Positions 6,788 to 60,385 of a DNA stretch of 64,000 nucleotides are shown piece by piece (the first letter of the stretch is position 1; every line of letters starts with the position of its first letter). Position numbers and translations under genes: made by a program. The stretch is from NCBI GenBank assembly GCA_001695595.3, contig MBPM02000027.1, positions 1-64,000 of the forward strand, in the 5' to 3' direction. This DNA is from Plasmopara viticola (lineage: Eukaryota > Oomycota > Peronosporomycetes > Peronosporales > Peronosporaceae). Under the pieces are notes generated by a model that was given only the letters and a program-made list of their open reading frames with translations, was not told the DNA's origin and did no database searches.

Positions 6788-6805
6788 ACCCGTCTAGCTC
6801 AGTTG
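6788..6805 (+). pseudogene. tRNA-Lys 5' stub (nt 1-18), 3'-side target duplication of LINE-A1
   Basis: ACCCGTCTAGCTCAGTTG is followed at once by LINE sequence. The cut lies between G18 and G19 of the D loop, inside the A box. Nucleotides 1-18 are repeated at the far end of the element (14639). Confidence 0.9.
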
Positions 6806-6810
6806 AAGGT

Positions 6811-6834
6811 CGTCTATATTAAGTTATATAGGCG
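6811..6834 (-). other. LINE-A1 3'-terminal hairpin
   Basis: CGTCTATAT and ATATAGGCG form a 9-bp stem (one G-T) with a 6-nt loop, five bases from the insertion junction. A4 and A5 keep the stem with a changed loop. LINE-B has an equivalent stem of different sequence. A structure read by the reverse transcriptase at the RNA 3' end is the likely role (inference). Confidence 0.7.
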
Positions 6835-6930
6835 AATGTCTACCCAACTTGCCTGGCGTAATATCTGTTGTAAACTACTCTAGTGTACTATATATAATTA
6901 TGCATTTTTATCCAAAATAGGAATCTTCAT

Positions 6931-6972
6931 AAATTTATGTATTTTCCTCAAAAAAGGAAAGTGCATAAATTT
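6931..6972 (-). other. LINE-A1 second 3' hairpin (18-bp arms)
   Basis: Arms 6931-6948 and 6955-6972 are inverted repeats with two imperfect pairs around a 6-nt loop. In A5 the matching arms (59493-59504 and 59512-59523) pair perfectly over 12 bp, with both sides changed, which suggests a maintained structure. Confidence 0.65.
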
Positions 6973-7418
6973 GTGTTTTTTCCTTAGTTTTGGTTTTGGA
7001 TTTCGTCCAATCACTGGCTTGAGAGGGTTTCGGTTCTACACTTTGCCCCCATTTTGACTTCAACTTCGGCCAAAATTGGTCGTTTAGACCTTCTGTTTGT
7101 GGCAACATTGCTCGGAAACTGCGGCCAATCAACAGCTGAAACTTTGGGCACATGTGCAGCGCATACAGTGCCCATTGCATGCCAATTGTTCACACGTGTC
7201 GAGACCTCAGGTGCTTAAACGGAAGTCCGGTCTTTCAGCACACTGTCGCGTCGTTTCACGACGGCGTAGCCCGCAGCTCAATCCGTGGGCCGACCCATAA
7301 CTGGGATCGGGTCTCGACCTTAAACTTTATAAGGTAAAGTCCCTGGCTTTTCATTCGTCATGTAGATAAAAAAAATTTGTCCCTCCACCCCACAGCGAAA
7401 ATAAAAAAAATTGCCTCT

Positions 7419-7839
7419 ATGGCCCCACAGGTAAGTTGGCTTCTCAAGCCCTGCAGGGTTACCAAAACTGATGTGTTTCATCTCTCAGGCTGAACCAAGG
7501 AACCCCTGGCCTTCCAGGGCGCACAGAAGACAAAAGCTCTGGCCTCAACACACAGCCGCTTTCTCACTGCTTTTCAGGAGGCGCCGCCTTCCCCGGCTTC
7601 TGACGCGGCTAGCTCGCACCCGATGCCCCTCCATGTGCGCCGTATGGATACATCAAGTACGAGGCTTGCGGCGACGTCGGACCCTAAAGCAACCCAGACG
7701 TTATTCAAAGGAAACGATTTCACCCGCAAGGGCAACCGGCAGGCTGCCCGACCAGGTAGCAGCCACAACATCTGACGGCGAAGTGGCATTAATTGAAATG
7801 AACTCAATATTTGCCGACATTGACCGTGTTCTTTCCTAG
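7419..7839 (+). CDS. Antisense spliced ORF in LINE-A1 3' region (120 aa predicted)
   Basis: ATG GCN CCA CAG is followed by a 58-nt intron-like segment (7431-7488: GTAAGT donor, CTGAT branch-like motif at 7468-7472, CTCTCAG acceptor). Joining the exons gives an Arg-rich 120-aa frame ending at 7839. The frame is not recognised; it has no clear domain and resembles a basic low-complexity peptide. A2 and A3 keep the same exon-intron layout. A4 and A5 have lost the donor but keep an open frame over the first part of exon 2. The overlapping +1 frame also stays open and is less Arg-rich, so which frame, if any, is used is uncertain. Confidence 0.3.
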
Positions 7840-7895
7840 ACCTCGCCCATTTTTTGTCTTGTGCGCACAGGTCGTGATGACACCGGCTTCGCAGG

Positions 7896-10800
7896 TCAGA
7901 GCTGCGTAGTACGCTCCTGGGTGATGCCTGGATGCTGGCAAGTGAAGCTGCAAAACATGGAATGGGTTCTCAGCAAGCCAATCACTTGTTGCAGATCTTG
8001 GCTCAGCTGTCGGTCATACAGGTGTCGCTGGAGAAAGCGAAGGTGCGCACAGAAAGTCGACAGTATGATCAAGAGCGCCGGAGCTATTGGCATCGGTTGC
8101 CGTCCGTCGAATAAGCATCGATTGCGGTTCGTCCAGATCGTGTGAAGCACTACAGCCCGAAGCACATGCCATACTTCTCTTACCACAACAGAGCATTTAA
8201 TCCATTCGTCGCGTACGCGCAGCTTGCTCGCGAGAGCAATATCGAGCCACAACGGTCGAGAGACAAAGAACGGCGAGACAAGCTGCAGGATCTGGCACCA
8301 CAGCTGTGACGCAAGCGTGCAGTCAAAAAACAAATGCTTTTCGGTCTCTATCGCGTTGCATCCTGCACGCACGCATTTACGAATCCCTGGATGTGACGTC
8401 TCCAAGAACCAAAAGCGCGATCGCACAGGCAGCAGGCGAAACGCTAGACGAAACTGCAAGTCTTCGAAGACTGGAAGCAGGATCTGGCGCAGTCGCTTGC
8501 TATACTCCGCGAAGGCTTCAATTTGGTGGTTGTCAACGCGCTTCGAGTAAATTTTCATCGGGTGCGGCTTTTTCGGAGGGTCAGGCGCCCAGACAATTTT
8601 TATAATCGCTGACCGTGGGATTTTCGGGATCAAGAATATTTTTGCTTTGTTCCGGTAGCCAACTCGTGGAAGCAGACATCTCTGTGCGTCGATACTTGAC
8701 AAGTCTCGTACAAGTTGTCGTGCTTCAAGGCGGTCTACAATCTGTGTCGCTTCGCGGTACAGCGAGCGCAGCCACTTTATCTGTGTATACGGTCGCACTG
8801 AGCCAATCGTGTAGTCGATATGTCGCTGTACGAAGGTAGTTGCAGCTGGCCACTCTTCACCTTCACACCTGAAGTCGGAAAGTGACCGTAAGTTGAAGAC
8901 ACGTGAGATATGGAGACGAAAGCTTCGTTGTGGTTCGGTAACCATCCCTAGACAACGTCGATGCACCACTGCCGCATCGGACCGTTTTCGCTTCTCGTAG
9001 TGAAGTTGAGCATCAGCATGGAACCAAATCGGCTGATGTAGGCCGTACGTGGCGCGTTCATGTGAATCCAAGTCATGCCACGTGACGTTCCATCGAGTCT
9101 TGTACCAACACACCCACGTCTCTCTCCACCACATTGCACTTCGGCTAGTGAGATAAGCTGGCCGTGACGAAGAGGTGAAATTGTAAGAAAGTCCAGTGCA
9201 TGGCATCCGCCATAGGAAGGTAATCCTGACGCCAGCAGCTCAACACTCGCTGCCGTCCAGTTTCGCTCATCAGCAGCACTTACAGCCCCAATAAACTGCA
9301 ATAACAGCGAAAGACGTTGCTTCTTGAGCTGTGCATCGAGACGCGGAATTCCAAGACCACCTTGATTGCGCCGGAGATAAAGAAATTCGCTCGGTATGAG
9401 CATCACGTGCTTTCCGTCACGATCATGCTTTCGACTCAACACGAATCGGTTAAGCATCGATTGCCAGCGCCGCACAATGATCTGAGAAATATTCGCGTGC
9501 TGAGTGTAGTGCCATAAGCGTGATAGCACCATCGTCTGTGCAACGAGCAGTCTCCCTCGGAGTGTGCGAGCGCGCCTGTACCATGACTTTATGCCCTCAA
9601 AAAAGCGAGCATCCAAGAATTCGGTGATCATGTCGTTGACTGACGCCTGACCGAACGGGATGCCTAAGTATTTTGTTGTGTCAGAACGATCAAGGACTTG
9701 GACCCCGGGAAGTTCAGGACACACCGTGCTACGATTAAGAGCCAGCAGTACCGACTTGGATAGATTAAGTCTTGCTCCAGAGCCAGCACAATACTCGTCG
9801 ACAATTTCGAGCTGAGCCTGAACGTGATCAATTGATCCGGCGAGAAGCGTCGAGTCATCTGCAAAAAACATGCTTGTCACCGTACAATTCGCATTTAGAC
9901 ATACCCCGTATTCCTCATGTTTGCGAAGCAAATTTCCAAGAGGCTCAATTGTGAGAACAAATAGGAGTGCCGACAGAGGGTCTCCTTGCTTAACGCCTCG
10001 AGTAGGGTGTAAAGCCGGCTGGATGTTACCATTGATGAGCAGGTGTGCCTTCGGTTTGGTGTACAAGAGCCGGACCCAAGATATAAAAACTGGTCCAAAG
10101 CCCATGCAAGCCAGCAGCCGAAACATGTATGACCAATTTACACGGTCGAATGCCTTTTGAAAGTCCAGGAAAAGTGCGTATGCCTCTTCATCCCGACTCG
10201 TGACAAGGTCTTGCAGGTCGACAAGAAAGCGTACATGATGATGAATTGATCGAGTCTTGACGAAGCCTTTTTGGTCTGGATGAATCAAGTCGAGCATTAC
10301 ACTTTGTAGCCGATATGTCAGTGCTTTTGACAGCACCTTTACGTCGACTGGCACGAGTGCAATCGGACGGTAATTGCCTGGCTCAGCGCGAGAACCCTTC
10401 TTATGTAGCAGTACGACCGCCGATTTGCGCTGAGACGCTAAAAGCTTACCACGTCGCAGCCTATCTCTAAAGACAATGACGAGGCACTCCCCGAATACTA
10501 CTGGTGCCACCTGATAAAATCCAGCCGTCAATCCGTCCATGCCTGGAGCGGATGTCGCTCTCATATGCCGGATTGCAGTTGCAAGGTCAGCAGTGGTCAA
10601 GTCGGCTTCCAAAGCTGTGTAGCTCGTGACTGGGACGCTTCTCGAAATTGAGTCAAGAAGTTTGCGTTGCTTCGCGCCATTTGGCTCAGAAGCCGATTCG
10701 TTTGGGCTTTCGACATCACCCATCTCAGACCCCCAGTGCTCCAAGAAGCGCAGAGAAATTTCTTGAGGATTCGATGAGACATTTCCACTCGGTGTTATTA

Positions 10801-12080
10801 CCTCTTCAATCGAAACGCGCCGCAAACTTGTGTCGAGAGGACGAAAAAAATGGGATGTTGAACGTTCTGAGTTGTTGGCTTGGAAATCGAAAGAAGCATC
10901 ATGATTGTATTGACTACTTCTTTTGACTGTGTCTTTATAGATTTGCAGAGCCTCGTCAAAGAAGTCTCGATTGTTTTTGTCTGGAAATACGCGGTATCGT
11001 GCGGCTGCTTGATCTAATGTGACGCGGGCATCTTCGATCTCTCGCGTACTTTGTTGCTTGAGCTTCCTCTGTACGTCTTGAAGCTGAGTCTTGATGCTTC
11101 CTTTCCACTTTTCCCAAATTTTCCCGGGGTTTTTTGAACGGCGAAGTTGGTCTAGGACCTGCTCGGCCTCCCTCTCAATCGCTGATACAATCTTCGGATA
11201 TTCGAGGAGGTATTGTGGAAATTTCCAATAACCACGACCATGTAGCTGCGTACCGCTTCGAAGGGAAACACTATGAGCAAGATGATCCCAGCGTGCATTG
11301 GCAGGAAGTATTCAGCACTTTCGTAAAAGCGGTCACAGAATTGCTCCGAAACTAAAATGTAGTCCAGGCGATTTTTTCGAGGAAGGGGACCAGTAAACAC
11401 TCGCTTAAAGTCATAGTGAGTACGCCACGCATCAACGACACCTAGCTTGGCAAGCCACTCGAGACAAGCAGAGCGGCTCGGGTCGTAGCGCAAGTCAGGT
11501 TTCGAGCAGTCAAGTCGCGGGTCAAGTGGCGTATTTAAATCTCCAAGCACGAAGTGCGTTGCATCATCTTCAAACCCATCTATTGGAAGGTTTAGAAAGA
11601 ACGATTGCTTTTCGTGTCTATCGACGGGCGCATACACATTGTGATATAGACGGGAGCACGTTGAACCGTTACCTTTACAACAAGATACCGTCCCGGCACC
11701 GACAGGTGTACCATTTCTGCAGCCGTGTCGATACCAGGAAAATCAGAACGTAGCAGCGTCAGGACTCCACTACTGCGACCGCGCGTGGGTCGGTCGAGTC
11801 GCGTGTTACTGTCATTGACGAAGAGTTTGTGCGCAAAATGTGAGCAGAGGTGAAACTTGAACGTATTGAGATGCTGCGCGTCAGCAAACTTGGTTTCTTG
11901 TACGCATGTTAGCGAGTGCTTGGCCAAAAGATTTCCAATAAGGAGGTGGCCATTTCGCTTGATGCCGTTTGTGTTCACTGTCATAAGCGAGACAGCGTTC
12001 CAAGCGTGTTGTCCTTCCGACTCAACTTTAGCATCGACTGGAGACAGCTCCAGCCACAGTCGTAGCCAAGGAGCCGGCAT
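7896..12080 (-). pseudogene. LINE-A1 ORF2 (endonuclease-reverse transcriptase), frameshifted
   Basis: Encodes the retrotransposition enzyme that nicks target DNA and primes cDNA synthesis. Residues 33-275 are an APE-type endonuclease (VQETK Glu, GDLNTP Asp/Asn, RLDYIL Asp, GDHLAHS His). A basic linker follows. The reverse transcriptase spans about 500-800, with FLDFQKAFD (motif A), RGVKQGDPLS (B) and FFADDS (C, catalytic Asp pair). The C-terminal part has a zinc-binding pattern C-x4-C-x8-H-x4-C near residue 1240, as in the zf-RVT family. Against A2/A3 this copy lacks single bases near 11643, 11287 and 9147, which splits it into open pieces 12080-11592, 11637-11152, 10825-8948 and 9206-7896. 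Its first Met lies 53 bp inside ORF1 in the +1 frame. Confidence 0.93.
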
Positions 12081-14570
12081 TCAATTGAATTTTTAGCACC
12101 GATGAGTCGTCCGGATAGTACCCTTCAAGCTGGCGGAGCACTTCAAGGTCATCAAGAAGGTGACCTTGCCATTGTACGTCACGCCACTGCTCCATACAGA
12201 GCTCTCCAACCTTAGAACGCAGCAGCCGTAGCAGTGTGTTGGGATGCAAGAAGCGCATGTGGTGTGCTGGAATCCATTCGACTGGCTGGCCTGTAAAGTA
12301 TTGAATCCAGTGGTCATTTTTAAAGAGTGTCGGAGCAGCGGACATGAGCGCAAGCTCAAATATACCGAGTGCCTTCGACGCACGCGCAAGCTCTGTAATT
12401 GAGTCAGAGTGGGTCCACCACTTGGCACATGCCTTGAAGATTTCATGGCGGTTGGATGGTAGAGGCATATTCATGACACGCTTCCACTTTGTAACAAAAG
12501 TTGTGTCTTCTTGCGGGTACGTAGCTGATAATACGCGGTTAATTGCGTGCAGTTGCGCAATTTCAGCGATGATGCGGTGGTCATCTGCCATTTTAAGGGA
12601 CAACGCGCTGTTGAAAGCCATCGGACATTGAGCTGCCGGCTTCATCACAAGGTCTGGATTTGTTGCATTATCAAGTAGCTTGACCATGCCATCGACCTTT
12701 TCGTCTGCAAGCACAAGGCGATCTGGCAACGTATCAAGCAGCGCAGTATTTTCATCATTGATCATTGCCTCCGTGACTTCTAGGATCGACGAAGCCTTTG
12801 CAGCTTTTTTAATTTTTGTGTGGTGTTTTTCCATGAAAAATACCGACTCCTTTGCGGTGGCCATCCCCGAAGGACGTGCCACGGCTACTGGTACGATCTG
12901 CTTGCGCACGCCAAACTTCTTGCTTGCCGTGACGTCTTTAAGCTCAAGATCGACTTCCATGTTTTGCAGGACCTCGAAGTAGTTTTTAGTCGCGATTCCG
13001 TCGAGTGATTGCGGCTGCTTTTTGGTAAGAAGATTCGAAAGGTCAATATCTCCGCGGCTCCGCTTCTTGGTGTTGAAGACGGTTGCGAATCCGTCTGAGC
13101 TTTCCCCATTTGTAAGGTACATCGTTGGCTTCTTCATACTGCTTTCGGGACTACGGGGTGGGGAAATTTTTCCGCTCGACCCCTCGAACGTCGCAACTGA
13201 CAGAATATCGTCGGTGCAGCTTAGGGGGCTTGCAAGTCGATTGCAGTTAGGCGGTAAACTATGCTGAGCTTCTTGCTGAAGCTTCTTATCATTTTTCGTT
13301 GTGGACTCCTGTACTGCACGCTGCAGCGAGGTCATCGGCTGGGACTTAGAAGTGGCTGGTTTTGGGTTCGTTTGATGCTGCTGTTTCGCTGCAACAAGTG
13401 CCGTGACAGGCTGCAGTGGTGGTGACCCGGTTGGAGTGGCTGGGCGTCGATAGATGTCGTCACTCGTGCGCAGGTCGATGAAATGATGCGAACGATAGCC
13501 GAAAGGCAAACGCTCGGAAGGATATGGAGCGTTCTTTCCGTGCACGGGGTGCAACTTGTTGTCGAACTGGAGCTGGTCACACACTGATCCATTCACAATG
13601 AGGGGACCTGGGCATGTCGTGGTAAGGAAGTATACTCTCCAGGTTGCTGACGTTATACCAGTTGCAAGGTTTACTTCACGGAAGGTATCGTACACCGGTT
13701 TACAGCCCATCAAGAACAAGCGGTGCAGCATTACGTCCGTTTTCGTGTCCGAGTCAACATTCGAAACATCGACATAGTACTTGCCACCTAGCACGTCGAA
13801 TTCCTTAAACATGAATACACCCCCTAGAATGTTTACTTTTGTGCGCTCGAGAGCGATGCAGGCGTTCTTCGACTTTACCTTAATTCGAAGATTACCACCA
13901 GGAAGTTTGGACACTTGGCCGATCTCGAACTTGCTGTACAGGTGCTCAAGTGCTTTGTTGCCGTGATGCTTGCCTGTAAGCGATGCCATAATCTTCTGAA
14001 GCGGTGTTTTTGCAAACATGCGTCCGGTATCGATTACCATATCGTACTTGGCACGAGGTAGGGTATATGGTCGCGCCTGCTCCATGTGAGAGGCGATGAA
14101 TGACCAGTCCCCGCCAGCAGCGTACTGACGTTCGATTGCTTCAATGTCGCAGGCGAGTGGCTTGGGCGTTTCTACACGCCGACGCGCAGCGTCAGCGTCT
14201 TCGGTGCTCCGACGAATGGTTTCTTGCTGCGCAAGTAAGCTAGCCATGGTCGGACGCATGTCTTCATCTGGTGGGGACGAGACATTTTTGACGCCTGACT
14301 GAGGGGAGAGAATCGATTCACCGTCCGGACTACCAGGTGCACTTGACCCAGCGAACGCGTCCGAGGTGGAAGCATTAAGTTTCGGCGGCGTGACCGTAGC
14401 CGCGCCGTCAGTTGAACTGGATGTCAGAGGCAACTCTATATCGAGTCCCTTCTCCAATTGATGATTACTTACAGTAAGTAACAACGCAGACGGGACAGCA
14501 GACGGGACAGATTTGACGTTTTCGAAAGATTCTTTGCGATACGCGGGATAGAAATGTCAGGGCTGTCCAT
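12028..14570 (-). CDS. LINE-A1 ORF1
   Basis: Open for 818 codons from a Met at 14484. The original start is probably the Met at 14570 (MDSPDIS, as in A3 and A4), from which this copy is separated by a one-base loss near 14547. By analogy with other LINEs it should bind the element RNA, but I recognise no named fold and see no CCHC zinc knuckle. The N-terminus is Ser/Thr/Pro-rich. A conserved central block (KPLACDIEAIERQYAAGGDW to VHGKNAPYPSERLPFGYR) is shared with LINE-B and is the likely folded core. It is followed by a Gln/Ser-rich spacer, a basic KKRSRGD patch and a second conserved block ending about 45 nt before the first Met of the ORF2 endonuclease. It is the only ORF1 in the window that is open over most of its length. 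Confidence 0.85.
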
Positions 14571-14638
14571 TGCAATAGAACGAAGGGTAGAAAAGGTGGT
14601 TGAAAGGGGGTACTTCCTATGATTTGACTTGCGTAGTA

Positions 14639-14710
14639 ACCGTCTAGCTCAGTTGGTAGAGCGCTGGCCTTTTAAGCCAGTGGTCGTGGGTTCGAGCCCC
14701 ACGGGGGGTG
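14639..14710 (+). tRNA. tRNA-Lys-like rebuilt at the LINE-A1 5' junction
   Basis: Full tRNA body directly abutting the LINE 5' end. One C is missing from the acceptor strand (ACCGTC), perhaps lost when the 5' junction formed. Confidence 0.75.
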
Positions 14711-17436: not shown

Positions 17437-18531
17437 AAGGTCGTCTGTATTAAGTTATATAGGCGAATGTCTACCCAACTTGCCTGGCGTAATATCTTTT
17501 GTAAACTACTCTAGTGTACTATATATAATTATGCATTTTTATCCAAAATAGGAATCTTCATAAATTTATGTATTTTCCTCAAAAAAGGAAAGTGCATAAA
17601 TTTGTGTTTTTTCCTTAGTTTTGGTTTTGGATTTCGTCCAATCACTGGCTTGAGAGGGTTTCGGTTCTACACTTTTGCCCCCATATTGACTTCAACTTCG
17701 GCCAAAATTGGTCGTTTAGACCTTCTGTTTGTGTCAACATTGCTCGGAAACTGCGGCCAATCAACAGCTGAAATTTTGGGCACATGTGCAGCGCATACAG
17801 TGCCCATTGCATGCCAATTGTTCACACGTGTTGAGACCTCAGGTGATTGAACGGAAGTCCGGTCTTTCAGCACACTGTCGCGTCGTTTCACGACGGCGTA
17901 GCCCGCAGCTCAGTCCGTGGGCCGACCCATAACTGGGATCGGGTCTCGACCTTAAACTTTATAAGGTAAAGCCCCTGGCTTTTCATTCGTCATGGTAGAT
18001 AAAAAAATCTTGTCCCTTCAGGCCCCACAGCGAAAATAAAAAAAAATTGCCTCTATGGCACCACAGGTAAGTTGGCTTCTCAAGCCCTGCAGGGTTACCA
18101 AAACTGATGTGTTTCATCTCTCAGGCTGAACCAAGGAACCCTTGGCCTTCCCGGGCGCACAGAGGACAAAAGCTCTGGCCTCAACACACAGCCGCTTTCT
18201 CACTGCTTTTCAGGAGGCGCCGCCTTCCCCGGCTTCTGACGCGGCTAGCTCGCACCCGATGCCCCTCCATGTGCGCCGTATGGATACATCAAGTACGAGG
18301 CTTGCGGCGACGTCGGACCCTAAAGCAACCCAGACGTTATTCAAAGGAAACGATTTCACCCGCAAGGGCAACCGGCAGGCTGCCCGACCAGGTAGCAGCC
18401 ACAACATCTGACGGCGAAGTGGCATTAATTGAAATGAACTCAATATTTGCCGACATTGACCGTGTTCTTTCCTAGACCTCGCCCATTTTTTGTCTTGTGC
18501 GCACAGGTCGTGATGACACCGGCTTCGCAGG
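17437..18531 (-). other. LINE-A2 3' noncoding region
   Basis: Same layout as in A1: terminal hairpin at 17442-17465, second hairpin near 17562-17603, then the antisense ORF. It differs from A1 by scattered single-base changes. Confidence 0.75.
18055..18475 (+). CDS. Antisense spliced ORF in LINE-A2 3' region
   Basis: ATG at 18055, intron-like segment 18067-18124 (58 nt, GTAAGT to CTCAG), exon 2 to the stop at 18473-18475. It encodes almost the same basic peptide as in A1. An overlapping 89-codon frame (18142-18411) is also open. Confidence 0.3.
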
Positions 18532-21500
18532 TCAGAGCTGCGTAGTACGCTCCTGGGTGATGCCTGGATGCTGGCAAGTGAAGCTGCAAAACATGGAATG
18601 GGTTCTCAGCAAGCCAATCACTTGTTGCAGATCTTGGCTCAGCTGTCGGTCATACAGGTGTCGCTGGAAAAAGCGAAGGTGCGCACAGAAAGTCGACAGT
18701 ATGATCAAGAGCGCTGGAGCTATCGGCATCGGTTGCCGTCCGTCGAATAAGCATCGATTGCGGTTCGTCCAGATCGTGTGAAGCACTACAGCCCGAAGCA
18801 CATGCCATACTTCTCTTACCACAACAGAGCATTTAGTCCATTCGTCGCGTACGCGCAGCTTGCTCGCGAGAGCAATATCGAGCCACAACGGTCGAGAGAC
18901 AAAGAACGGCGAGACAAGCTGCAGGATCTGGCACCACAGCTGTGACGCAAACGTGCAGTCAAAAAACAAATGCTTTTCGGTCTCTATCGCGTTGCATCCT
19001 GCACGCACGCATTTACGAATCCCTGGATGTGACGTCTCCAAGAACCAAAAGCGCGATCGCACAGGCAGCAGGCGAAACGCTAGACGAAACTGCAAGTCTT
19101 CGAAGACTGGAAGCAGGATCTGGCGCAGTCGCTTGCTATACTCCGCGAAGGCTTCAATTTGGTGGTTGTCAACGCGCTTCGAGTAAATTTTCATCGGGTG
19201 CGGCTTTTTCGGAGGGTCAGGCGCCCAGACAATTTTTATAATCGCTGACCGTGGGATTTTCGGATCAAGAATATTTTTGCTTTGTTCCTGTAGCCAACTC
19301 GTGGAAGCAGACATCTCTGTGCGTCGATACTTGACAAGTCTCGTACAAGTTGTCGTGCTTCAAGGCGGTCTACAATCTGTGTCGCTTCGCGGTACAGCGA
19401 GCGCAGCCACTTTATCTGTGTATACGGTCGCACTGAGCCAATCGTGTAGTCGATATGTCGCTGTACGAAGGTAGTTGCAGCTGGCCACTCTTCACCTTCA
19501 CACCTGAAGTCGGAAAGTGACCGTAAGTTGAAGACACGTGAGATATGGAGACGGAAGCTTCGTTGTGGTTCGGTAACCATCCCTAGACAACGTCGATGCA
19601 CCACTGCCGCATCGGACCGTTTTCGCTTCTCGTAGTGAAGTTGAGCATCAGCATGGAACCAAATCGGCTGATGTAGGCCGTACGTGGCGCGTTCATGTGA
19701 ATCCAAGTCATGCCACGTGACGTTCCATCGAGTCTTGTACCAACACACCCACGTCTCTCTCCACCACATTGCACTTCGGCTAAGTGAGATAAGCTGGCCG
19801 TGACGAAGAGGTGAAATTGTAAGAAAGTCCAGTGCATGGCATCCGCCATAGGAAGGTAATCCTGACGCCAGCAGCTCAACACTCGCTGCCGTCCAGTTTC
19901 GCTCATCAGCAGCACTTACAGCCTCAATAAACTGCAATAACAGCGAAAGACGTTGCTTCTTGAGCTGTGCATCGAGACGCGGAATTCCAAGACCACCTTG
20001 ATTGCGCCGGAGATAAAGAAATTCGCTCGGTATGAGCATCACGTGCTTTCCGTCACGATCATGCTTTCGACTCAACACGAATCGGTTAAGCATCGATTGC
20101 CAGCGCCGCACAATGATCTGAGAGATATTCGCGTGCTGTGTGTAGTGCCATAAGCGTGATAGCACCATCGTCTGTGCAACGAGCAGTCTCCCTCGGAGTG
20201 TGCGAGCGCGCCTGTACCATGACTTTATGCCCTCAAAAAAGCGAGCATCCTTCGGTGATCATGTCGTTGACTGACGCCTGACCGAACGGGATGCCTAAGT
20301 ATTTTGTTGTGTCAGAACGATCAAGGACTTGGACCCCGGGAAATTCAGGACACACCGTGCTACGATTAAGAGCCAGCAGTACCGACTTGGATAGATTAAG
20401 TCTTGCTCCAGAGCCAGCACAATACTCGTCGACAATTTCGAGCTGAGCCTGAACGTGATCAATTGATCCGGCGAGAAGCGTCGAGTCATCTGCAAAAAAC
20501 ATGGTTGTCACCGTACTATTCGCATTTAGACATACCCCGTATTCCTCATGTTTGCGAAGCAAATTTCCAAGAGGCTCAATTGTGAGAACAAATAGGAGTG
20601 CCGACAGAGGGTCTCCTTGCTTAACTCCTCGAGTAGGGTGTAAAGCCGGCTGGATGTTACCATTGATGAGCAGGTGTGCCTTCGGTTTGGTGTACAAGAG
20701 CCGGACCCAAGATATAAAAACTGGTCCAAAGCCCATGCAAGCCAGCAGCCGAAACATGTATGACCAATTTACACGGTCGAATGCCTTTTGAAAGTCCAGG
20801 AAAAGTGCGTATGCCTCTTCATCCCGACTTGTGACAAGGTCTTGCAGGTCGACAAGAAAGCGTACATGATGATGAATTGATCGAGTCTTGACGAAGCCTT
20901 TTTGGTCTGGATGAATCAAGTCGAGCATTACACTTTGTAGCCGATATGTCAGTGCTTTTGACAGCACCTTTACGTCGACTGGCACAAGTGCAATCGGACG
21001 GTAATTGCCTGGCTCAGCGCGAGAACCCTTCTTATGTAGCAGTACGACCGCCGATTTGCGTTGAGACGCTAAAAGCTTACCACGTCGCAGCCTATCTTTA
21101 AAGACAATGACGAGGCACTCCCCGAATACTACTGGTGCCACCTGATAAAATCCAGCCGTCAATCCGTCCATGCCTGGAGCGGATGTCGCTCTCATATGCC
21201 GGATTGCAGTTGCAAGGTCAGCAGTGGTCAAGTCGGCTTCCAAAGCTGTGTAGCTCGTGACTGGGACGCTTCTCGAAATTGAGTCAAGAAGTTTGCGTTG
21301 CTTCGCGCCATTTGGCTCAGAAGCCGATTCGTTTGGGCTCTCGACATCACCCATCTCAGACCCCCAGTGCTCCAAGAAGCGCAGAGAAATTTCTTGAGGA
21401 TTCGATGAGACATTTCCACTCGGTGTTATTACCTCTTCAATCGAAACGCGCCGCAAACTTGTGTCGAGAGGACGAAAAAAATGGGATGTTGAACGTTCCG

Positions 21501-25124: not shown

Positions 25125-25577
25125 GTGCGCCATGCATTTATACTAGAAAGCAGCACATGCTCCTTCTTCGTATTTTGGTTTGGATTTCTCTTTAAGTCTA
25201 ACAATCGTCATGGTCGTTCACGGTGCGATTACTCTTGACTACAAGAGCGACGCAAGTAGCTGTTTTAAACAGCAAAGAATACTATTTCCTGCTCGACTAT
25301 ATTCGAAGCATTTCCGTTGTTAGGAAATGGGCTGCCTGTCTGCACTCAGCAGTTAGAATTCTGTTCGTAAACACGAAAACTATGTATGATCTTCGCAAGA
25401 GAATGTTCAATCATGCGTTTGTCACGACGTTCTTGTCCGGCTTATGCGGGTAGAATAATGTGGTTGCGTGCGTGCATACCAAGAGCTTATACTTGGTGTT
25501 GGTGTTTTTGTCGGTGTGCTTGCTCCTGGTTGTGTTTCTCTTTTTGTGTACATTTGATATTATCTTAACTCGAGTAT

Positions 25578-39400: not shown

Positions 39401-39417
39401 GCCAAGAACCCCCCCAG

Positions 39418-39492: not shown

Positions 39493-39493
39493 G

Positions 39494-45718: not shown

Positions 45719-45761
45719 CAGAGAGACGGCATTCCAGGCGTGCTGTGCAGCCGAGGCAACT

Positions 45762-48162
45762 TTAGCAACGGGTGGACAAGCCTCCCGCTACCGTCATTGC
45801 GTGGCCGTCAGCATCCATGCAGACCTTCAGCACCGACGAGTCGACCGGGTAGTAACCGTCGAGCTTTCGCAGCGCCTCTAGGTCGTCGAGCAAGTGACCT
45901 TGCCACTGTACCTCACTCCACTGCTGCAAGCAGTGTGAACCAAGGTCTGACCGCAGCAGTCGCAGCAGCGTGTTTGGGTGCAGGAAACGCATGTGGTGCG
46001 CCGGGATCCACTCAACCGGCTGGCCCGTAACGTACTGGACCTAATGGTCGTTCTTAAACAGCGTCGGTGCGATCGACATGAGCGCGAGCTCAAACATGCC
46101 GAGCGCCTTGGACGCGCGCGACAGCTCTGTGATCGCGTCTGTGTGGGTCCACCACTTGGCACACTCCTTGAAGATGTCTTGACGCTTCGGCAACATCGAC
46201 ATCCCCATGACGCGCTTCCACTTCGTCACAAATGTTGTGTCTTCGTCAGGATACGTCGCGCACAACACGCGGTTGATCGCGTGAAGCTGGGCGAGCTCCT
46301 CGATCGAGTTGCCGTCACCATCCATCGCGAGCGATAGCGCGCTATTGAACGCGAGCGGACAAGCAGCGGCCGACTTCACGATGTGGTCGGGGTTTGTCGC
46401 GTTCTCGATGAGCTTCACCATACTGGGAACCTTTGCGTCTGCTTCTGTGAGACGGTCCGGGAGAATGTTGAGCAGTGCCGTATTCTCATCGTTGATCATC
46501 GACTCGGTCACCTCAAGTATCGGCGACGCCTTAGCTGCCTTCTTGATCCTTGTGTGGTGCTTCTCAACGAAGAATGCCGACTCCGCTGCGGTCGTCAGCG
46601 CCTCGGGGCGCTTCACATTGCTCGGCACGACCTGCTTGCGCACGCCGTGCTTCTTGTTCGCGGTGGCGTTTTTGACCACGAGATCGACTTCCATAGACTG
46701 GAGTGCTTCGAAGTAGTTTGCAGTCGCGACGCCATCGAGGGGCTGCGGTTGCTGCTTCGTGAGCAAAGCAGTGAAGTCGATGTCACTGCGTCTACGCCTC
46801 TTTTTATTCTGGACCGTCGAGAATACGTCCGCGTTGCTGCCATTCATCAAGAGTAAGATCGGAGCTTTCGTCTTGCCGTTAGGACTGCCGGGGGAGAAAT
46901 TTTGCCGTTGAATCCTTCGAACGTTGAGATCGACAAAGCGTCGTCGTGGGTGCTTGGGATCTTCGCGAGCTGGTTGGTGCCAGGAGGCGAGCCATGCGGA
47001 GCTCCTCTTTGGAGCTTCCCATGCGCTTCTTGGACTCCTCAACTGCCTTCTGCTGCGAGGTCATTCGCTTGCCGTTCGCCGCAGCTTGTGTAGGGATCGT
47101 TGGCATAGCTTGTTGATGTTTCTTGGGTTGCTTCGACGCCTGTGACGACGACGACGGCGACTCGGCCGGAGGGTCTGGACGCGGGAAGACTTCGTCGCTT
47201 GTGAGCAGGTCGATGCCGTGGAGCGAGCGATTACCATACAGTAGACGCTCGGACTGAAACGGTGCGCTCTTGCCGTGAGCTGGGTGCAGCTTGTTGTCGA
47301 ACAGGATCTGGTCACATACCGAGCCGTTCACCATCAGCTGTAGTGGACACGTGTTCGAGAGGAAGTACACTCGCCACGTCGCCGAAGTGATGCCGGTAGC
47401 CATATTTACCTCGCGGAACGTGTCATAGATCGGCTTGCACCCAAGGATGAAGAGCCGATGCAGGATCGCGTCCGTGTTGGTGTTCGAATCGACGTTGGAA
47501 ATGTCGAGGAAGTACTTGCCTGCGAGGACGTCGAACTCCTTGAACAAGAAGACACAGCCCAAGATGTTCACTTTTGTGCTCTCAAGCTTGAGGCAGGCTT
47601 GCTTTGTCTTGATCTTTACGCGTAAATTACCGCCAGGGAGCTTCGACACTTGGCCGATCGCATGCTCGCTGTACAGGTTCTCAAGCGCGTCGTTACCGTG
47701 GTGCGAACCAGCCAGCGACGCCATGATCATCTGTAGCGGAGTCTTCGCGAAAGTGCGACCCGTGTCAATGACCATGTCGTAACGCGCAAGGGGCAATGCG
47801 TACGGCCGCGCTTGGTCCATCTGCGAGGCGATGAATGACCAGCCACGCCCAGCAGCGTACTGGCGCTCGATCGACTCGATGTCACACGCGAGCGGTTTTG
47901 GCGTCTCGATGCGGCTTCTATTCGCTTCGACTTTGGCTTCGTCGCGACGGATGGTCTCCTGCTCTCGCAGCAGTGCGGCCATCGTTGGACGCTTGTCGAT
48001 AGGTGTAGTCAACGCTTTAACAGTTGGAGGTAACTCCATCGGCTCGTCATCGTGGTCTGCGATCACAGTCGTGCTGGAGTCCACGGCGTTGGCGGGGGAA
48101 AGAACAACAGCAGACACGGCAGCAGCAGCGACGTTGGTAACAGAAACCGGAGGCGCATCCAT
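45762..48162 (-). pseudogene. LINE-B ORF1, interrupted
   Basis: The first in-frame ATG is at 48162, but the same frame is open upstream almost to the LINE 5' end (Ser/Pro-rich), so the start is uncertain. The conserved core (KPLACDIESIERQYAAG to LHPAHGKSAPF) is readily aligned to LINE-A ORF1. There is a frameshift near 46890-46900 and an in-frame TAG at 46041-46043 replacing a Trp of the KNDHW motif. The C-terminal block resumes and stops at 45762, 44 nt before the ORF2 Met. Confidence 0.85.
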
Positions 48163-48576
48163 CGGCTCGTCTTCCGAGTCTTTAAGCGCGGGTGCAGGCG
48201 GCTCGGAGGGCGCGGACGAGGGGGGCGACAAAGGTACGAGAGGCGACGGTGGCGCAGCTGGATGGGTGGCTGCCGAGGCGTCATCAGAATAATCAGAGCC
48301 GGTTGAACAAACCGAGGGAGATGGACTTCCCGAGGTACTCAGATTGCTGGGTGCCGACTGGATTCTTGATGCAGAGACAGGCGAAGATCCGGCTGCGTCG
48401 CGTGAGCGACTGGACAGCAGATGGCGAGGAGGCGTAGGAAAGGGGGGCTGCGAAACTTCCTGCAGCTTGATTTTCCATCTATACTGGCTAGAGAGCAATA
48501 AGATGGCTGGGAAGGAGGGTGAGGGTTGGGTTCTTCTGAAGAGTCGACTTGTAGGGTTGCCGGCAAATTGAGAAGT

Positions 48577-48649
48577 ACCCGTCAAGCTCAGTTGGTAGAG
48601 CGCTGGCCTTTTAAGCCAGTGGTCGTGGGTTCGAGCCCCACGGGGGGTG
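48577..48649 (+). tRNA. tRNA-Lys-like rebuilt at LINE-B 5' junction
   Basis: Complete body. Position 8 is A instead of T (GTCAAGCTC), which alters the start of the A box. Confidence 0.7.
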
Positions 48650-53877: not shown

Positions 53878-54910
53878 AAGGTCGTCTATATCATGTAATA
53901 TAGGCGAATGCCTTCCCAACTCGCCTGGCGTAATATCTGTTCTAAACTACTCTAGTGTACTATATATAGTTTTGCATTTTTTTCCAAGATAGGAATATAC
54001 AAAAATTTATGTAATTTCATAAAAAAAGGAAATTACATAATTTATGTGTTCCGCGTATTTTTTGGATTTCATCCAATCACTGGCCTGGGAAGGTTTCGGC
54101 TCTACACTTTTGCCCCCATTTCGACTTCAACTTCGGGCGAAAAAGGCCTTTTGGACCCTCTGTGCGTGGCAACCTTGCTCGATAACCGCGGTCGATCAAC
54201 AGCCGAAACTTTTGGCCCTTGGGCAGCACATACAGCGCCCATTGCGTGCAACTTGTTCACGCGTATCGAGACTTCAGGTGCCTAAACGAAAGTCCGGTCT
54301 TTTAGCACACTGCCGCATCGTTTCACAACGGCGTAGCCCGCAGCTCAATCCGTGGGCCGACCCATAACTGGGATCGGGTTTCGACCTTATACTACATGAG
54401 GTAAAAATCCCTGGCTTCTCATTCGTCATGGACAATATTTTTTTTTTCTCCAGGCCTCACAGCGAATATTTTTTTCCTCTTTGGCCTCACAGTTTTTGGG
54501 CCCTGCAGGATTACCAAAATCACTGTGTTTCAGCTCCCAGGCTGAACCAAGAAAACCCTATCCTCCCGGGGCGCACACCAGACAGAAGCCTCGTCTTCAA
54601 CACAAAACCGCTTTCTCACTGCTTTTTAGCAGGCGCCGCCTTCTCCGGCCTCTGGCGCGACTGGTTTGCATCCGATTATCCTTCAGGCTCACCGTATTGC
54701 TACACCAAGTGCGAGGCTTGCGTCGACAGACCCCATAGCGACCCAGACGTTCTTTAAGTGATATGTCATCACCCGCAAGGGCAACAGGCAGGCTGCCCGA
54801 CCAGGTAGCAACCTCAGCATCTGAAGGCGGATTGTAATCATTTGAATTGAACTCAATATGCCGACATTAACCTTGTTCTTTCCTAGACGTTGCCCATTTT
54901 TTCCTGTGCG
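53878..54910 (-). other. LINE-A4 3' noncoding region
   Basis: Homologous to the A1 3' region. The + strand exon-2-like frame of the antisense ORF is present (about 54481-54738) but the GTAAGT donor is absent. Confidence 0.7.
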
Positions 54911-55956
54911 CTCCATCTCCCGCGTATCTTGTTGCTTGAACTTCTTCTGTTCGTGATAAAGCTGAGTCTTGATGCTTTTTATCCAGTTTATCCAAATTTG
55001 TCGGGGGTTTCTGATCGGCGAATTTAGTCCAGGACCTGCTCGGCCTCGCTTTCAATTTCTGCACAGCCTTCGAATATTCGAGGAGGTATCGCAAGAATTT
55101 TTAATAACCAGGACCATGTAGCTGCTTACCACTGCGAAAGAGAAACACTTTGAGCAAGATGGTCATTAGTGTGCACTGGAAAAATATTTGGCATTTTCGT
55201 TAAAGCGGGCACAGAATTGCTCCGAAACCAGAATGTCGTCCGGTCGATATTTTGAGGAAGAGGACCAGTAAACACTCGCTTAAAGTCATAGCGGGTACGC
55301 AACGCGTCAATGACACCTAGTTTGGCAACCAACTCGAGATAAGCAGAGCGGCTCGGGTCGAAGTGCAAGTCAGGTTTCGAGCAGTCAAGTCGCGGATCAA
55401 GTGGCGTAATTTAATCTCCAAGCATGAAGTGCGTCGCATCATCTTCAAACCCTTCTATTGGAAGGTTTAGAAAGAACGATTGCTTTTCGTGTCTATCGAC
55501 AGGCGCATACACATTGTGAATATAGGCAGGAGCACGTTGAACCGTTACCGTTACGACAAGATATCGTCCCGGCACCGACAGGTTTAATATTTCTGCAGCC
55601 GTGTCGATACCAGGGAAATCAGAACGTAGCTGCGTCAGAACTCCACTACTGCAACCACGCGTGGGTCGGTCGAGTCTCATGTTACTAACATTGACAAAGA
55701 CTTTGTGGGCAAAATTTGAGCTGAGGTGAAACTTGAATGTATTGAGATGCTCCACGTCAGCAAACTTGGTTTCTTGGACGCATGTTAGCGAGTGTTTGGC
55801 TACAAGTTTTTCAATAGAGGTGACCATTTTGCTTGATGCCGTTTGTGTTGACGGTAATAAGCGAGATAGCGCGTCCCAGGCGTGTTGTTTTTCCGATCCA
55901 ACTTTAGCAGCGACTGGAGACAGCTCCAGCCACTGTCGTAGCCAAGGAGCCAGCAT
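54911..55956 (-). pseudogene. LINE-A4 ORF2 remnant (endonuclease and linker only)
   Basis: Endonuclease pieces occur at 55956-55411 (VQETKFAD, YAPVDRHEKQ) and 55368-55126 (KRVFTGPLP), with several frameshifts and changes around the RLDYIL motif. A basic linker follows, then the deletion. It cannot encode a reverse transcriptase. Confidence 0.88.
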
Positions 55957-58424
55957 TCAATTGAATCTTCAGCACCGACGAGTCGTCTGGATAATTTGGC
56001 GGAGCACTTCAAGGTCGTCAAGAAGGTGAGCTTGCCATTGCACGTCACGCCACTGCTCCATGCAAAGCTCTCCAACCTTAGAACGCAGCAGCCGTAGCAG
56101 TGTGTTGGGATGCAAGAGGCGCATGTGGTGTGCTGGAATCCATTCGACTGGCTGGCCTGTAAAATATTAAATCCAGTGGTCATTTTCAAAGAGTGTCGGA
56201 GCAATGGACATGAGCGCAAGCTCGAATATACCGAGAGCCTTCGAAGCACGCGCAAGCTCCGTAATCAAGTCAGAGTGGGTCCACCACTTGGCACACGCCT
56301 TGAAGATGTCATGGCGGTTGGATGGTAGCGGCAAATTCATGACACGCTTCCACTTTGTAACAAAAGTTGTGTCTTCTATTGGATACGTAGCTGATAATAC
56401 GCGGTTAATCGCATGCAGTTGGGCAATTTCAGCGATGATGCGATGGTCACCTGCCATTTTAAGGGACAATGCGCTGTTGAAAGCCATCGGACATTGAGCT
56501 GCTGGCTTCATCACAAGGTCTGGATTTGTTGCGTTATCAAGTAGCTTGATTATGCCATCGACCTTTTCGTCTGCAAGCACAAGACGATCTGGCAACGTAT
56601 CAAGCAGTGCAGTATTTTCATCATTGATCATTGCCTCGGTGACTTCGAGGATCGACGAAGCCTTTGCTGCTTTTTTTATTTTTGTGTGATGTTTTTCCAT
56701 GAACAATACCGACTCCTTTCTGGTGGTTATCCCCGAAGGACGTGCCACGGCTACTGGAACGATCTGCTTTCGCACGCCAAACTTCTTGCTTGCCGCGACG
56801 TCTTTAAGCTCAAGATCAAATTCCATGGTCTGCAGGACTTCAAAAAAGTTTTTAGTCGCGATTCCGTCGAGTGATTGCGGTTGCTTTTTAGTGAGAAGAT
56901 TCGAGAGGTCAATGTCTCCGCGGCTCCGCTTATTGCTGTTGAAGACGGTTGCGAATCCGTCTGAGGTCTCTCCGTTGGTAAGGTACATCATTGGTGTCTT
57001 AATACTGCTTTCGGGACTACAAGGTGGGGAAATTTTCCCGCCCGACCCTTCGAACGTTGCAAATGATAGAATATCATCAGTGCAGCTTGGGGAACTTGCA
57101 AGCTGATTGCAGTTGAGCGGCAGACCATGCTGAACTTCTTGTTGAAGCTTCTTATCATTTTTCGCTTTGGATTCCTGTACTGCACGCTGCAGCGAGGTCA
57201 TCGATTTGGACTTCGAAATGGCTATTTTTGGTGTCGCTTGATGATCCTGTTTTGCTGCAGCAAGAGCTGTGACAGGATGCAGTGGCTGTGACCCGGTTGG
57301 AGTGGCTGCACGTTGCAATTTGGTGTCACTCGTGCGCAGGTCGATGAAATGATGCGAACGATAACCGAACGGCAAACGCTCGGAAGGATATGGAGAGTTC
57401 TTTCCGTGCACGGGGTGCAGCTTGTTGTCGAAGTGGAACTGGTCACACACTGATCCATTCACAATGAGAGGACCTGGGCATGTCGTGCTAAGGAAGTATA
57501 CTCTCCAGGTGGCTGACGTTATTCCAGTTGCAAATTCACTTCACGGAAGATATTGTACACCGGTTTGCAGCCCATCAAAAACAAGCGGTGCAACATTACG
57601 TCCGTTTTCGTGTCCGAGTCAACATTCGAAATATCGACAAAGTACTTGCCACCTAGCACGTCGAATTCCTTAAACATAAATACACCCCCTAAGATGTTTA
57701 TCGTTGTGCGCTCGAGAGCGATGCAGGCGTCCTTCGACTTAACTTTAATTCGAAGATTGCCACCGGGAAGTTTGGACACTTGGCCTATCTCGAACTTGCT
57801 GTACAGGCGTTCAAGTACGCCGTTGCCGTGATGCTTGCCCGTTAGCGATGCCATAATCTTCTGGAGCAGTGTTTTTGCAAACATGCGTCCGGTATCGATG
57901 ACCATATCGTACTTGGCACGAGGTAAGGTATATGGCCGCGCCTGCTCCATCTGAGAGGCGATGAATGACCAGTCCCCGCCAGCAGCGTACTGGCGTTCGA
58001 TTGCTTCAATGTCGCAGGCGAGTGGCTTGGGCGTTTCTACACGCCGACGCGCAGCGTCAACGTCCTCGGTGCTCCGACGAATGGTTTCTTGCTGCGCAAG
58101 TAAGCTAGCCATGGTCGGACGCATGTCTTCATCTGGTGGGGACGAGACATTCTTGACGCCTGACTGAGGGGAGAGAATCGATTCACTGTCCGTACCACCA
58201 GGCGCACTTGACCCAGCGAACGCGTCCGAGGTGGAAGCATTAAGTTTCGGCAGCGTGACCGTAGCCGCATCGTCAGTTGAACTGGATGTCAGAGGCAACT
58301 CTATATCGAGTCCCTTCTCCAATTGATGATTACTTACAGTAAGTAACAACGCAGACGGGACAGATTTGACGTTTTCGAAAGATTCTTTGCGAAACGCGCG
58401 GGAAGAAATGTCAGGGCTGTCCAT
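55905..58424 (-). pseudogene. LINE-A4 ORF1, interrupted
   Basis: Starts at Met 58424 (MDSPDIS), 86 nt from the element's 5' end. Open to 57519, then a frameshift near 57530, open again over 57462-56167, where a Gln-to-TAA change stops it. A 10-bp loss near 55995 follows in the C-terminal block. Confidence 0.85.
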
Positions 58425-58510
58425 TGCGATAGAACGAAGGGTAGAAAAGGTGGTTGAAAGGGGGCACTTCCTATGATTTGACTTGCGTAGTAGCCGGCAA
58501 ATTGGGAAGT

Positions 58511-58528
58511 ACCCGTCTAGCTCAGTTG
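58511..58528 (+). pseudogene. tRNA-Lys nt 1-18 between LINE-A4 and the SINE
   Basis: ACCCGTCTAGCTCAGTTG serves both as the 5'-side duplication of LINE-A4 and as the 3'-side stub of the SINE, so the SINE inserted into the tRNA that A4 had rebuilt. Confidence 0.9.
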
Positions 58529-58786
58529 AAAGTTGTCATGTATTTAATCTTAACACAACCTATACCTTCTCGGCTTGGCTAAATTTCTACATTTACATTT
58601 TTAGTCTGAAGATTCTTTTTCGTCTTGTTATTGTCTTATTCTTGATCGGGGTCGGAAATATTTCGCTTGGTGCCGTCCTCTCCCCAAGTCTGGTTGATTA
58701 CGAAGTTTGTCCGATGTGGGGCTCGAACCCGCAACACACACCGTGAGGACCAGAAGCATAATCCACTAACCCACGCCACCGGGTCT
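58529..58786 (-). mobile_element. tRNA-headed SINE at the same tRNA site
   Basis: A 258-bp insert flanked by tRNA nt 1-18 on both sides. In the minus sense it opens with a tRNA-like head (58782-58710): acceptor CCGGTG/CATCGG, an A-box-like TGGGTTAGTGGAT (58773-58761) and a B box GGGTTCGAGCC (58730-58720). A ~180-nt unique body follows. The 3' end, ATGACAACTTT, resembles the LINE-B end, ACAGACAAACTTT. No poly(A). The head resembles a tRNA-Glu or tRNA-Arg type; identity is unsure. It has no coding capacity and so depends on a LINE. Confidence 0.85.
58710..58782 (-). ncRNA. SINE tRNA-like head with Pol III boxes
   Basis: Internal A and B boxes and a closing acceptor-like stem ending in CATCGGA, a 3' end common in tRNA-Glu. 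The anticodon stem is weak (mismatch and wobbles), so it is a promoter-bearing relic and not a working tRNA. Confidence 0.65.
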
Positions 58787-58859
58787 ACCCGTCTAGCTCA
58801 GTTGGTAGAGCGCTGGCCTTTTAAGCCAGTGGTCGTGGGTTCGAGCCCCATAAGGGGTG
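58787..58859 (+). tRNA. tRNA-Lys-like rebuilt at SINE 5' junction
   Basis: Intact A and B boxes. The acceptor 3' strand reads AAGGGGT instead of the G run, with A opposite T6 but A opposite C7. Confidence 0.7.
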
Positions 58860-59344
58860 TAAATTGCGTAAGAGTCGTGCGTGAAAGATTTGTGCGCCAT
58901 GCATTTATACTAGAAAGCAGCACATGCTCCTTCTTCGTATTTTGGTTTGGATTTCTCTTTAAGTCTAACAATCGTCGTGGTCGTTCACGGTGCGATTACT
59001 CTTGACTACAAGAGCGACGCAAGTAGCTGTTTTGAACAGCAAAGAATAAAATTTTCTGCTCGACTATATTCAAATCATTTCCGTTGTTAGGAAATGGGGT
59101 GCCTGTCTGCACTCAGCAGTAAGAATTCTGTTCGTAAACACGAAAACTATGTATGATCTTCGCAAGAGACTGTTCGATCATGCGTTTGTCACGACGTTCT
59201 TGTCCGACTTATGCGGGTAGAATAATGTGGTTGCGTGCGTGCATACCAAGAGCTTATACTTGGTGTTGGTGTGTTTGTCGGTGTGCTTGCTCCTGGTTGT
59301 GTTTCTCTTTTTGTGTATATTTGATATTATCTTAACTCGAGTTT

Positions 59345-59362
59345 ACCCGTCTAGCTCAGTTG
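59345..59362 (+). pseudogene. tRNA-Lys 5' stub at LINE-A5
   Basis: Perfect nt 1-18, cut at G18/G19. Confidence 0.9.
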
Positions 59363-60385
59363 AAGGTCGTCTATATTATGTAATATAGGCGAATGTCTAC
59401 CCAACTTGCCTGGCGTAGTATCTGTTCTACTTCTCTAGTGTACTATATATAATTATGCATTTTCCTCCAAAATAGGAATATACAAAAAAGAAATGTAATT
59501 TCCTCAAGAAAAGGAAATTACATAATTTATGTTTTCCACGTATTTTTTGGATCTCATCCAATCACTGGTCTGGGAGGGTTCCGGTTCTACACTTTTGCCC
59601 CCGATTTGACTTCAACTTCGGGCGAAAAAGGCCATTTAGACCCTTTGTGCGTGGCAACGTTGCTCGATAACTGCGGTCGATCAACAGCCGCAACTTTTGG
59701 CACTTAGGCAGCACATACAGCGCCCATTGCATGCCAAATGCTCACGCGTATCAAGACTTCAGGGGCTTAAACGGAAGTCCGGTCTTTCAGCACACTGTCG
59801 CGTCGTTTCGCGACGGCGTGATCCGCAGCCCAATCCGTGGGCCGACCCATTTTTGGGATCGTTATACTTTATAAGATAAAAATCCCTCGCTTCTTATTCG
59901 TCGTGAGGAGTGAAAAAAATTCTTGATTCTCCAGGCCTCATAGTAAAGATAAAAAAAGTGACCGGTATGGCCCCATAGATAAATTGGCCTTTTAGGCCTC
60001 TTCGGGTCACCATAACCACTGGGATTCAGCTCTCAGACTTCATCAAGGTACCCTTGGCCCCCCAGTGTTCACAGAAGACAAAGCTCTTGACTTACGAAGC
60101 CGCATTCTCACTGCTTTGTTACAGGCGCCCCCTACTCCGGTCTTTTACGCAGCTGGCTCGTATCCAGTTACCCTCCAGGTGCACTGTATGGCTACATCAA
60201 GTGCGAGACTTGCGGCAGCGGACCCCAGAAAATTCGGACGTTCTTCGAGTGATGAGGCTTTACCCGTAAGGGCCCCGGCAGGCTGCCCGACCAGATAGCA
60301 CCCACATCTTCGGACGACGGTTTTTTAAACGATTGGAATGAACTCAGTATTTGCCGACGTTAACCGTGTTCTTTCTAGACGTTGT
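59363..60385 (-). other. LINE-A5 3' noncoding region
   Basis: Terminal hairpin plus a perfect 12-bp second hairpin (59493-59504 with 59512-59523). The antisense ORF region is recognisable (60054-60298) but the intron donor is gone (CATAGATAAATT). Confidence 0.7.

What the first reader, a model, noticed from the sequence alone, without database searches (positions are those of the whole stretch)
6788..59392. LINEs inserted at one exact nucleotide of a tRNA-Lys gene (G18/G19)
Six LINE 3' ends (6806, 17437, 27820, 39069, 53878, 59363) all follow ACNNGTCTAGCTCAGTTG of the tRNA-Lys-like gene with no offset, always antisense to the tRNA. Known tRNA-associated LINEs such as the Dictyostelium TRE elements insert at a distance from tRNA genes. 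Tx1-type LINEs are known to target 5S rRNA and U2 snRNA genes. A D-loop-cutting, APE-endonuclease LINE in tRNA-Lys would be a distinct target class. Orientation implies the first nick is on the tRNA sense strand between G18 and G19, with the second about 18 bp upstream.
Basis: partly seen in the sequence, partly recalled or inferred. Interest (0 to 1): 0.92.

Follow-up and report, generated by a model that had tools for sequence, protein, structure and literature searches.

The report
Jumping genes inserting into tRNA promoters
Two families of LINE retrotransposons and a short hitchhiker element, in what is probably a water-mould genome, insert at one fixed place in the internal promoter of many different tRNA genes, in a way that usually leaves a complete tRNA gene beside the new copy, so a parasite may spread through tRNA genes with little damage.

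Summary
The six LINE 3' ends are real and abut the tRNA-Lys D arm exactly, always antisense. Two points need correction. (1) The target is not tRNA-Lys. Genome-wide, two LINE families (A, B) and a ~250-bp SINE-like element sit at the same place in eleven tRNA types of eight amino acids, all with TRGCTCA in the A box. (2) The cut is probably not G18/G19. Where the native D loop is CAGTGG, CAGTCGG or CAAATGG, the junction still reads CAGTTG (25 of 25 SINE copies, 17 of 21 LINE junctions), so GTTG travels with the element and the sense-strand nick lies at or before nt 14. On the 5' side, 52 exact LINE ends meet tRNA nucleotide 1 in nine types. The duplication is thus nt 1-14 and the gene is rebuilt: 38 of 40 SINE copies are followed by a tRNA that ARAGORN calls. 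The LINE has an APE endonuclease and an L1-like RT. Site-specific LINEs are a known kind; I found no earlier APE-type LINE in the A box of many tRNAs in the library searched.

The parts
6806..14638 (-). LINE-A copy 1; 3' end at 6806; 5' end shortened (...GTAGTA) and joined inside the tRNA acceptor start
14638..14710 (+). tRNA-Lys(TTT) next to the 5' end of LINE-A copy 1
17437..25125 (-). LINE-A copy 2; 5' end truncated and joined to array spacer (no rebuilt tRNA here)
27820..35673 (-). LINE-A copy 3; full 5' end ...GGCAAATTGGGAAGT followed by ACC and then a deletion in the tRNA; endonuclease frame within 31356-33095
39069..48576 (-). LINE-B copy; full 5' end ...GGCAAATTGAGAAGT; carries an extra antisense (+ strand) ORF stretch at about 39341-41095
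48577..48649 (+). rebuilt tRNA-Lys(TTT), nt 1 directly after the LINE-B 5' end
53878..58510 (-). LINE-A variant with a large internal deletion; full 5' end
58511..58528 (+). tRNA-Lys nt 1-18 left between LINE 5' end and SINE 3' end (second insertion at the same site)
58529..58786 (-). SINE-like element, same target site, 3' tail like the LINE tails; 126 exact copies of its 21-nt 3' end in the genome
58787..58859 (+). rebuilt tRNA-Lys(TTT) after the SINE
59363..64000 (-). LINE-A variant, continues beyond the window
6795..6801 (+). A-box core TAGCTCA (tRNA nt 8-14): inferred recognition and nick region

Best explanation
Two related L1-like, APE-endonuclease LINE families and a short partner element are site-specific parasites of tRNA genes. 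Inferred mechanism: the endonuclease recognises the conserved A box (TRGCTCA, tRNA nt 8-14) of any tRNA that has it and nicks the tRNA-sense strand after GCTCA (nt 14, possibly a few nt earlier). The 3' end of the element RNA (...CTT(T)CAAC) is copied from that primer, which carries GTTG into the new site. The other strand is cut exactly in front of tRNA nt 1, so nt 1-14 are duplicated and a complete tRNA gene with both internal promoter boxes is rebuilt at the element's 5' end; only a short stub of the gene's start is left at the 3' end. Shown by sequence: site, orientation, range of tRNA types, element-borne GTTG, 5' junction at nt 1, rebuilt tRNA genes, APE domain. Inferred: which strand is cut first, direct recognition by the endonuclease, mobilisation of the short element by the LINE, and that rebuilt tRNAs work.
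Against: One LINE-B end (L060) is not in a tRNA. 13 of 126 exact SINE ends lack the exact preceding motif and were not read. Of 69 distinct element heads in the fetched loci, 59 follow exact GCTCAGTTG, 7 a near form and 3 an unlike sequence. 4 of the 21 informative LINE junctions read CACGTG, CTGTTG, CAGTCG or CAGTTA, and two Lys-TTT junctions read CAATTA. 60 of 112 bare 5'-motif hits are not followed by the exact pattern; of 20 read, six were not LINE ends, one LINE end had no tRNA, two were slightly altered. Of the five 5' ends inside the window only two (48576, 58510) are exact; one is shortened and two are spoiled by truncation or deletion. Many copies lie in tandem units (SINE spacing ~656 nt on C76), so sites outnumber independent events. 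The nick within GCTCA (nt 9-14) is not resolved. The tRNA-like head of the short element was seen by eye only; Rfam and ARAGORN did not call it.
Confidence: 0.85

Rival explanations
1. Targeting is led by the Pol III machinery (TFIIIB/TFIIIC bound to tRNA genes), as proposed for Dictyostelium TRE5, with little DNA specificity of the endonuclease.
For: The target is the A box and the second cut is at the start of the gene; TRE5-A ORF1 interacts with TFIIIB proteins (PMC5911963 passages).
Against: Insertion is inside the gene at one place rather than at a variable distance; Ser-GCT genes in the same arrays carry none in the fetched loci. Both could act together.
Confidence: 0.2
2. Few real insertions; copies spread by unequal exchange and gene conversion in tRNA arrays.
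For: SINE-bearing units repeat at regular spacing on some contigs; LINE-A copies 1-3 in the window are 98.7-99.3% identical.
Against: Insertions in different tRNA types keep each gene's own nt 1-9 and own 5' flank. By 3' junctions A hits 7 types, B 5 and the SINE 9, so about 21 separate events as a floor.
Confidence: 0.05
3. A LINE specific for tRNA-Lys cutting between G18 and G19.
For: All six cases in the window fit, because tRNA-Lys(TTT) itself reads CAGTTGG.
Against: Same elements in eleven types; GTTG at junctions of genes that lack it.
Confidence: 0.03

Closest known systems
Dewa (zebrafish, spacer of tRNA-Leu), with Mutsu (5S rRNA) and Keno (U2 snRNA)
   Same: Target-specific elements of small-RNA genes; Dewa is tied to a tRNA repeat (PMC3706591 passage). 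That they are Tx1-clade, APE-type LINEs is recalled.
   Different: Dewa is in the spacer of one tRNA repeat; here the site is inside the gene, in many tRNA types.
NeSL-1_TV (tRNA-Pro), LIN15_SM (tRNA-Arg), LIN25_SM (tRNA-Glu)
   Same: LINEs specific for tRNA genes (PMC4640811 passage).
   Different: Families near NeSL/R5, named with one tRNA type each; their restriction-like endonuclease is recalled. Here APE endonuclease and eleven types.
Dictyostelid TRE5, TRE3, NLTR-A, NLTR-B
   Same: L1-type LINEs tied to tRNA genes in general (PMC5911963, PMC5006619 passages).
   Different: They insert 2-64 bp upstream or 40-150 bp downstream; here inside the gene at about nt 14 with the second cut at nt 1.
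Dada DNA transposons
   Same: Several lineages insert at nt 8-13, in the A box, TAGCTC among the targets (PMC8869645 passages).
   Different: DDE transposons with 6-7 bp duplications; here a LINE with an nt 1-14 duplication that rebuilds the gene.
Oomycete Utopia (U2 snRNA)
   Same: Strictly site-specific LINE in a small-RNA gene of oomycetes (PMC4640811 passages).
   Different: Different gene; disrupted U2 genes lack their first 38 bp, not rebuilt. Its restriction-like endonuclease is from the abstract's wording and recall.

Membership tests
Non-LTR retrotransposon (LINE), APE type | Reverse transcriptase domain | tested here: met
   RVT_1 1.3e-34 (A) and 2e-32 (B)
Non-LTR retrotransposon (LINE), APE type | N-terminal APE-like endonuclease | tested here: met
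Non-LTR retrotransposon (LINE), APE type | Target-site duplication | tested here: met
   tRNA nt 1-14 on both sides
L1 group | RT closest to L1 among known clades | tested here: inconclusive
   LINE-1 ORF2p 3e-59 versus R2 2e-25 among solved structures; no tree with reference clades was built
Tx1 clade | RT placement with Tx1 | not tested
   no Tx1 reference sequence was at hand
TRE-type tRNA targeting | Insertion at a distance outside the tRNA gene | tested here: not met
   insertion inside the A box
SINE | 3' tail shared with a partner LINE | tested here: met
   tail GAGAAG...ACTTTCAAC aligned with LINE-A and B tails
SINE | Pol III (tRNA-like) head | tested here: inconclusive
   B-box-like GGTTCGAGCCC by eye; Rfam at E<=1 and ARAGORN did not call it

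The most novel reading that the evidence does not exclude
The element RNA finds its primer by base pairing. Read-through RNA ending ...CAACUGAGC is complementary to the A box, pairs with the nicked strand of any tRNA gene carrying GCTCA and thereby carries GTTG along. The insertion is self-healing because the second cut is set at tRNA nt 1, so the element can enter practically all TRGCTCA tRNA genes while its own 5' end becomes the new upstream region of the tRNA, and a SINE uses the same route.
Probability: 0.35. Interest if true: 0.88.

Novelty: new variant of a known kind. Interest (0 to 1): 0.76.

Why it matters
RNA-templated insertion tools rest on site-specific LINEs, mostly aimed at rDNA (recalled). 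An APE-type LINE whose site is the Pol III A box of many tRNA genes, and whose staggered cut rebuilds the gene, would be a new safe-harbour logic and a direct test of how an APE endonuclease gains sequence specificity. It also suggests how large tRNA arrays can tolerate some two hundred insertions (207 exact junctions).

Tried and rejected
3'-terminal RNA hairpin: five single stretches fold only slightly better than shuffles (z -0.69 to -1.65) and RNAalifold found 0 pairs on 22 tails; dropped. Rfam on the short element gave only the neighbouring tRNA. Clade placement by tree: not done, no reference sequences. Relatives in other species: protein hits only (475 hits among 7995 scored candidates, 120 listed; the best named ones are oomycetes, further down also fish), no flanks available, so whether the target is kept elsewhere is untested. 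Pfam on the antisense ORF stretch of LINE-B: nothing. An oomycete initiator-like promoter at the LINE 5' end was considered from a recalled consensus and not tested.

Papers: only search listings and passages were seen, no whole text or full sections: passages of PMC4640811, PMC8869645, PMC9584435, PMC5911963, PMC5006619, PMC9141347, PMC3747384, PMC3706591. The statement that I found no such LINE in print rests on the listings in one open-licence library; Repbase and subscription journals were not seen.

Full report
Observation. The window (contig C27 of an unnamed 93-Mb genome) is a tandem array of tRNA-Lys(TTT) units of about 557-596 bp. The motif GTCTAGCTCAGTTG occurs 43 times against 0.39 expected. 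At a seventh (58529) a short element does the same. The host is probably an oomycete: the best named relatives of the LINE protein are Globisporangium, Plasmopara, Peronospora and Phytophthora proteins. Large tandem tRNA arrays are described for oomycetes (PMC9584435 passages).

The target is the A box of many tRNA genes. Searches with 200 bp of each LINE 3' end gave 40 scored matches of 68 candidates (A) and 26 of 26 (B); 30 and 26 were given as loci and read. After removal of identical contexts and 3 partial alignments, 54 junctions remained, the window's included (one place, L042/L098, twice). They divide as: A - Lys-TTT 11, Thr-AGT/CGT 5, Ile 3, Lys-CTT 3, Met 2, Tyr 2, Thr-TGT 1, unassigned 2; B - Lys-TTT 8, Thr-AGT/CGT 7, Cys 1, Lys-CTT 1, Met 1, unassigned 7. 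Of the 9 unassigned, 6 look like tRNA A boxes by eye (two GCTCTCGTAGCTCAGTTG, two records of one Cys site ending CAGTA, one Lys-CTT-like, one Thr-TGT-like), one is unclear (GTTCAGTTG), one is not tRNA-like (L060) and one is cut by a contig end. The SINE search scored 40 of 293 candidates and listed 41 matches. Among 40 distinct full copies with enough flank the genes rebuilt next to them are Thr-AGT 9, Thr-CGT 7 (plus one that ARAGORN reads as Pro-CGG), Tyr 6, Lys-TTT 4 (plus one read with a stop anticodon), Ala 4, Met 2, Thr-TGT 2, Phe 1, Ile 1, and 2 without a call (a Phe start that holds a further insertion, and an Ala-like gene). Exact patterns give 207 junctions in the genome and 113 of 126 SINE ends with the exact motif; reversed-pattern controls are 0. 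Of 69 distinct element heads in all fetched loci, 59 follow GCTCAGTTG, 7 a near form and 3 an unlike sequence. The native targets share TRGCTCA at nt 8-14. Ser-GCT genes, whose A box reads GGCCGAG, alternate with Thr-CGT genes in the same arrays and carry no element in the fetched loci (0; 11 intact Ser contexts).

The nick is earlier than G18/G19. Native D loops differ: Lys-TTT, Met, Phe and Tyr read CAGTTGG; Thr and Cys CAGTGG; Ile and Lys-CTT CAGTCGG; Ala CAAATGG. Yet the junction reads CAGTTG in all 25 SINE copies at Thr, Ile and Ala genes and in 17 of 21 LINE junctions at Thr, Cys, Ile and Lys-CTT genes; the other four read CACGTG, CTGTTG, CAGTCG and CAGTTA, none the native form. Two Lys-TTT junctions read CAATTA. 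Nt 1-9 at each assigned junction are those of the target's own type (up to 2 mismatches allowed). So GTTG is carried by the element, and the primer end lies within nt 9-14, most simply after A14.

The 5' side. The LINE 5' end motif GGCAAATTGRGAAG occurs 112 times (control 1). In 52 places (control 0) it is followed by T, exactly seven nucleotides and TRGCTCAG; the seven letters are those of Cys, Phe, Thr-AGT/CGT, Thr-TGT, Ile, Lys-TTT, Lys-CTT, Met and Tyr, with a few variants and one unassigned type. Of 20 motif places read out, 11 show a tRNA starting at nt 1 right after GAAGT, one a degenerate Phe, one Cys after GAAGA, one a LINE end without tRNA, and six are not LINE ends. Because native position -1 is C in Phe, Ile and Met, the T belongs to the LINE. 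The second cut is therefore at the 5' end of the mature tRNA sequence. SINE 5' junctions vary by a few nucleotides around the same point (by eye). The duplication is nt 1-14, and it rebuilds the gene: 38 of 40 SINE copies are followed at once by a tRNA that ARAGORN calls. In the window tRNAs called by Rfam stand at 14638 (after a shortened LINE end), 48577 and 58787; at 25125 a truncation and at 35673 a deletion spoil the junction.

Mechanism. The best reading is target-primed reverse transcription from a sense-strand nick in the A box, then a cut in front of nt 1. Strand order and the role of the endonuclease are inferred from LINE biology. That GTTG travels suggests that element RNA ends in, or reads through into, the complement of the A box; pairing of that RNA with the nicked strand is a hypothesis.

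Comparison. Known relatives in target choice are Dewa in the tRNA-Leu spacer of zebrafish (PMC3706591 passage), NeSL-1_TV, LIN15_SM and LIN25_SM for tRNA-Pro, -Arg and -Glu (PMC4640811 passage), dictyostelid TRE and NLTR elements outside tRNA genes (PMC5911963 and PMC5006619 passages) and Dada transposons at nt 8-13 (PMC8869645 passages). I found no APE-type LINE inside the A box of many tRNA types and no tRNA-gene-specific SINE in the search listings. I rate it a new variant of a known kind.

Noticed in passing
window 39341-41095 (+); L039:1924-3198 (+); L041:55-1275 (-): LINE-B carries a long ORF on the strand opposite to its own genes between ORF2 and the 3' end (424 aa, still open at the locus end, and 406 aa in two other copies, with internal repeats near its start); Pfam finds nothing in the window pieces.
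   Followed up: partly
G000 C76, C249, C16 (places): SINE-bearing tRNA units recur at regular spacing (about 656, 750 and 590 bp), so the unit tRNA plus SINE has itself become a tandem repeat.
   Followed up: no
L101, L110, L111: The motif GGCAAATTGAGAAG is also followed by another shared repeat (TGATTGAGATT...), which looks like a different family with a similar start.
   Followed up: no
window tRNA-Lys array, e.g. 2890-2962: The array tRNA-Lys(TTT) has a G5-G68 mismatch in the acceptor stem by eye, and several units have one-base differences in length; whether these genes work is open.
   Followed up: no
L075, L076, L085: More diverged SINE relatives (72-84% identical over 72-156 nt) sit in tRNA-Ala arrays next to the young ones.
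   Followed up: no
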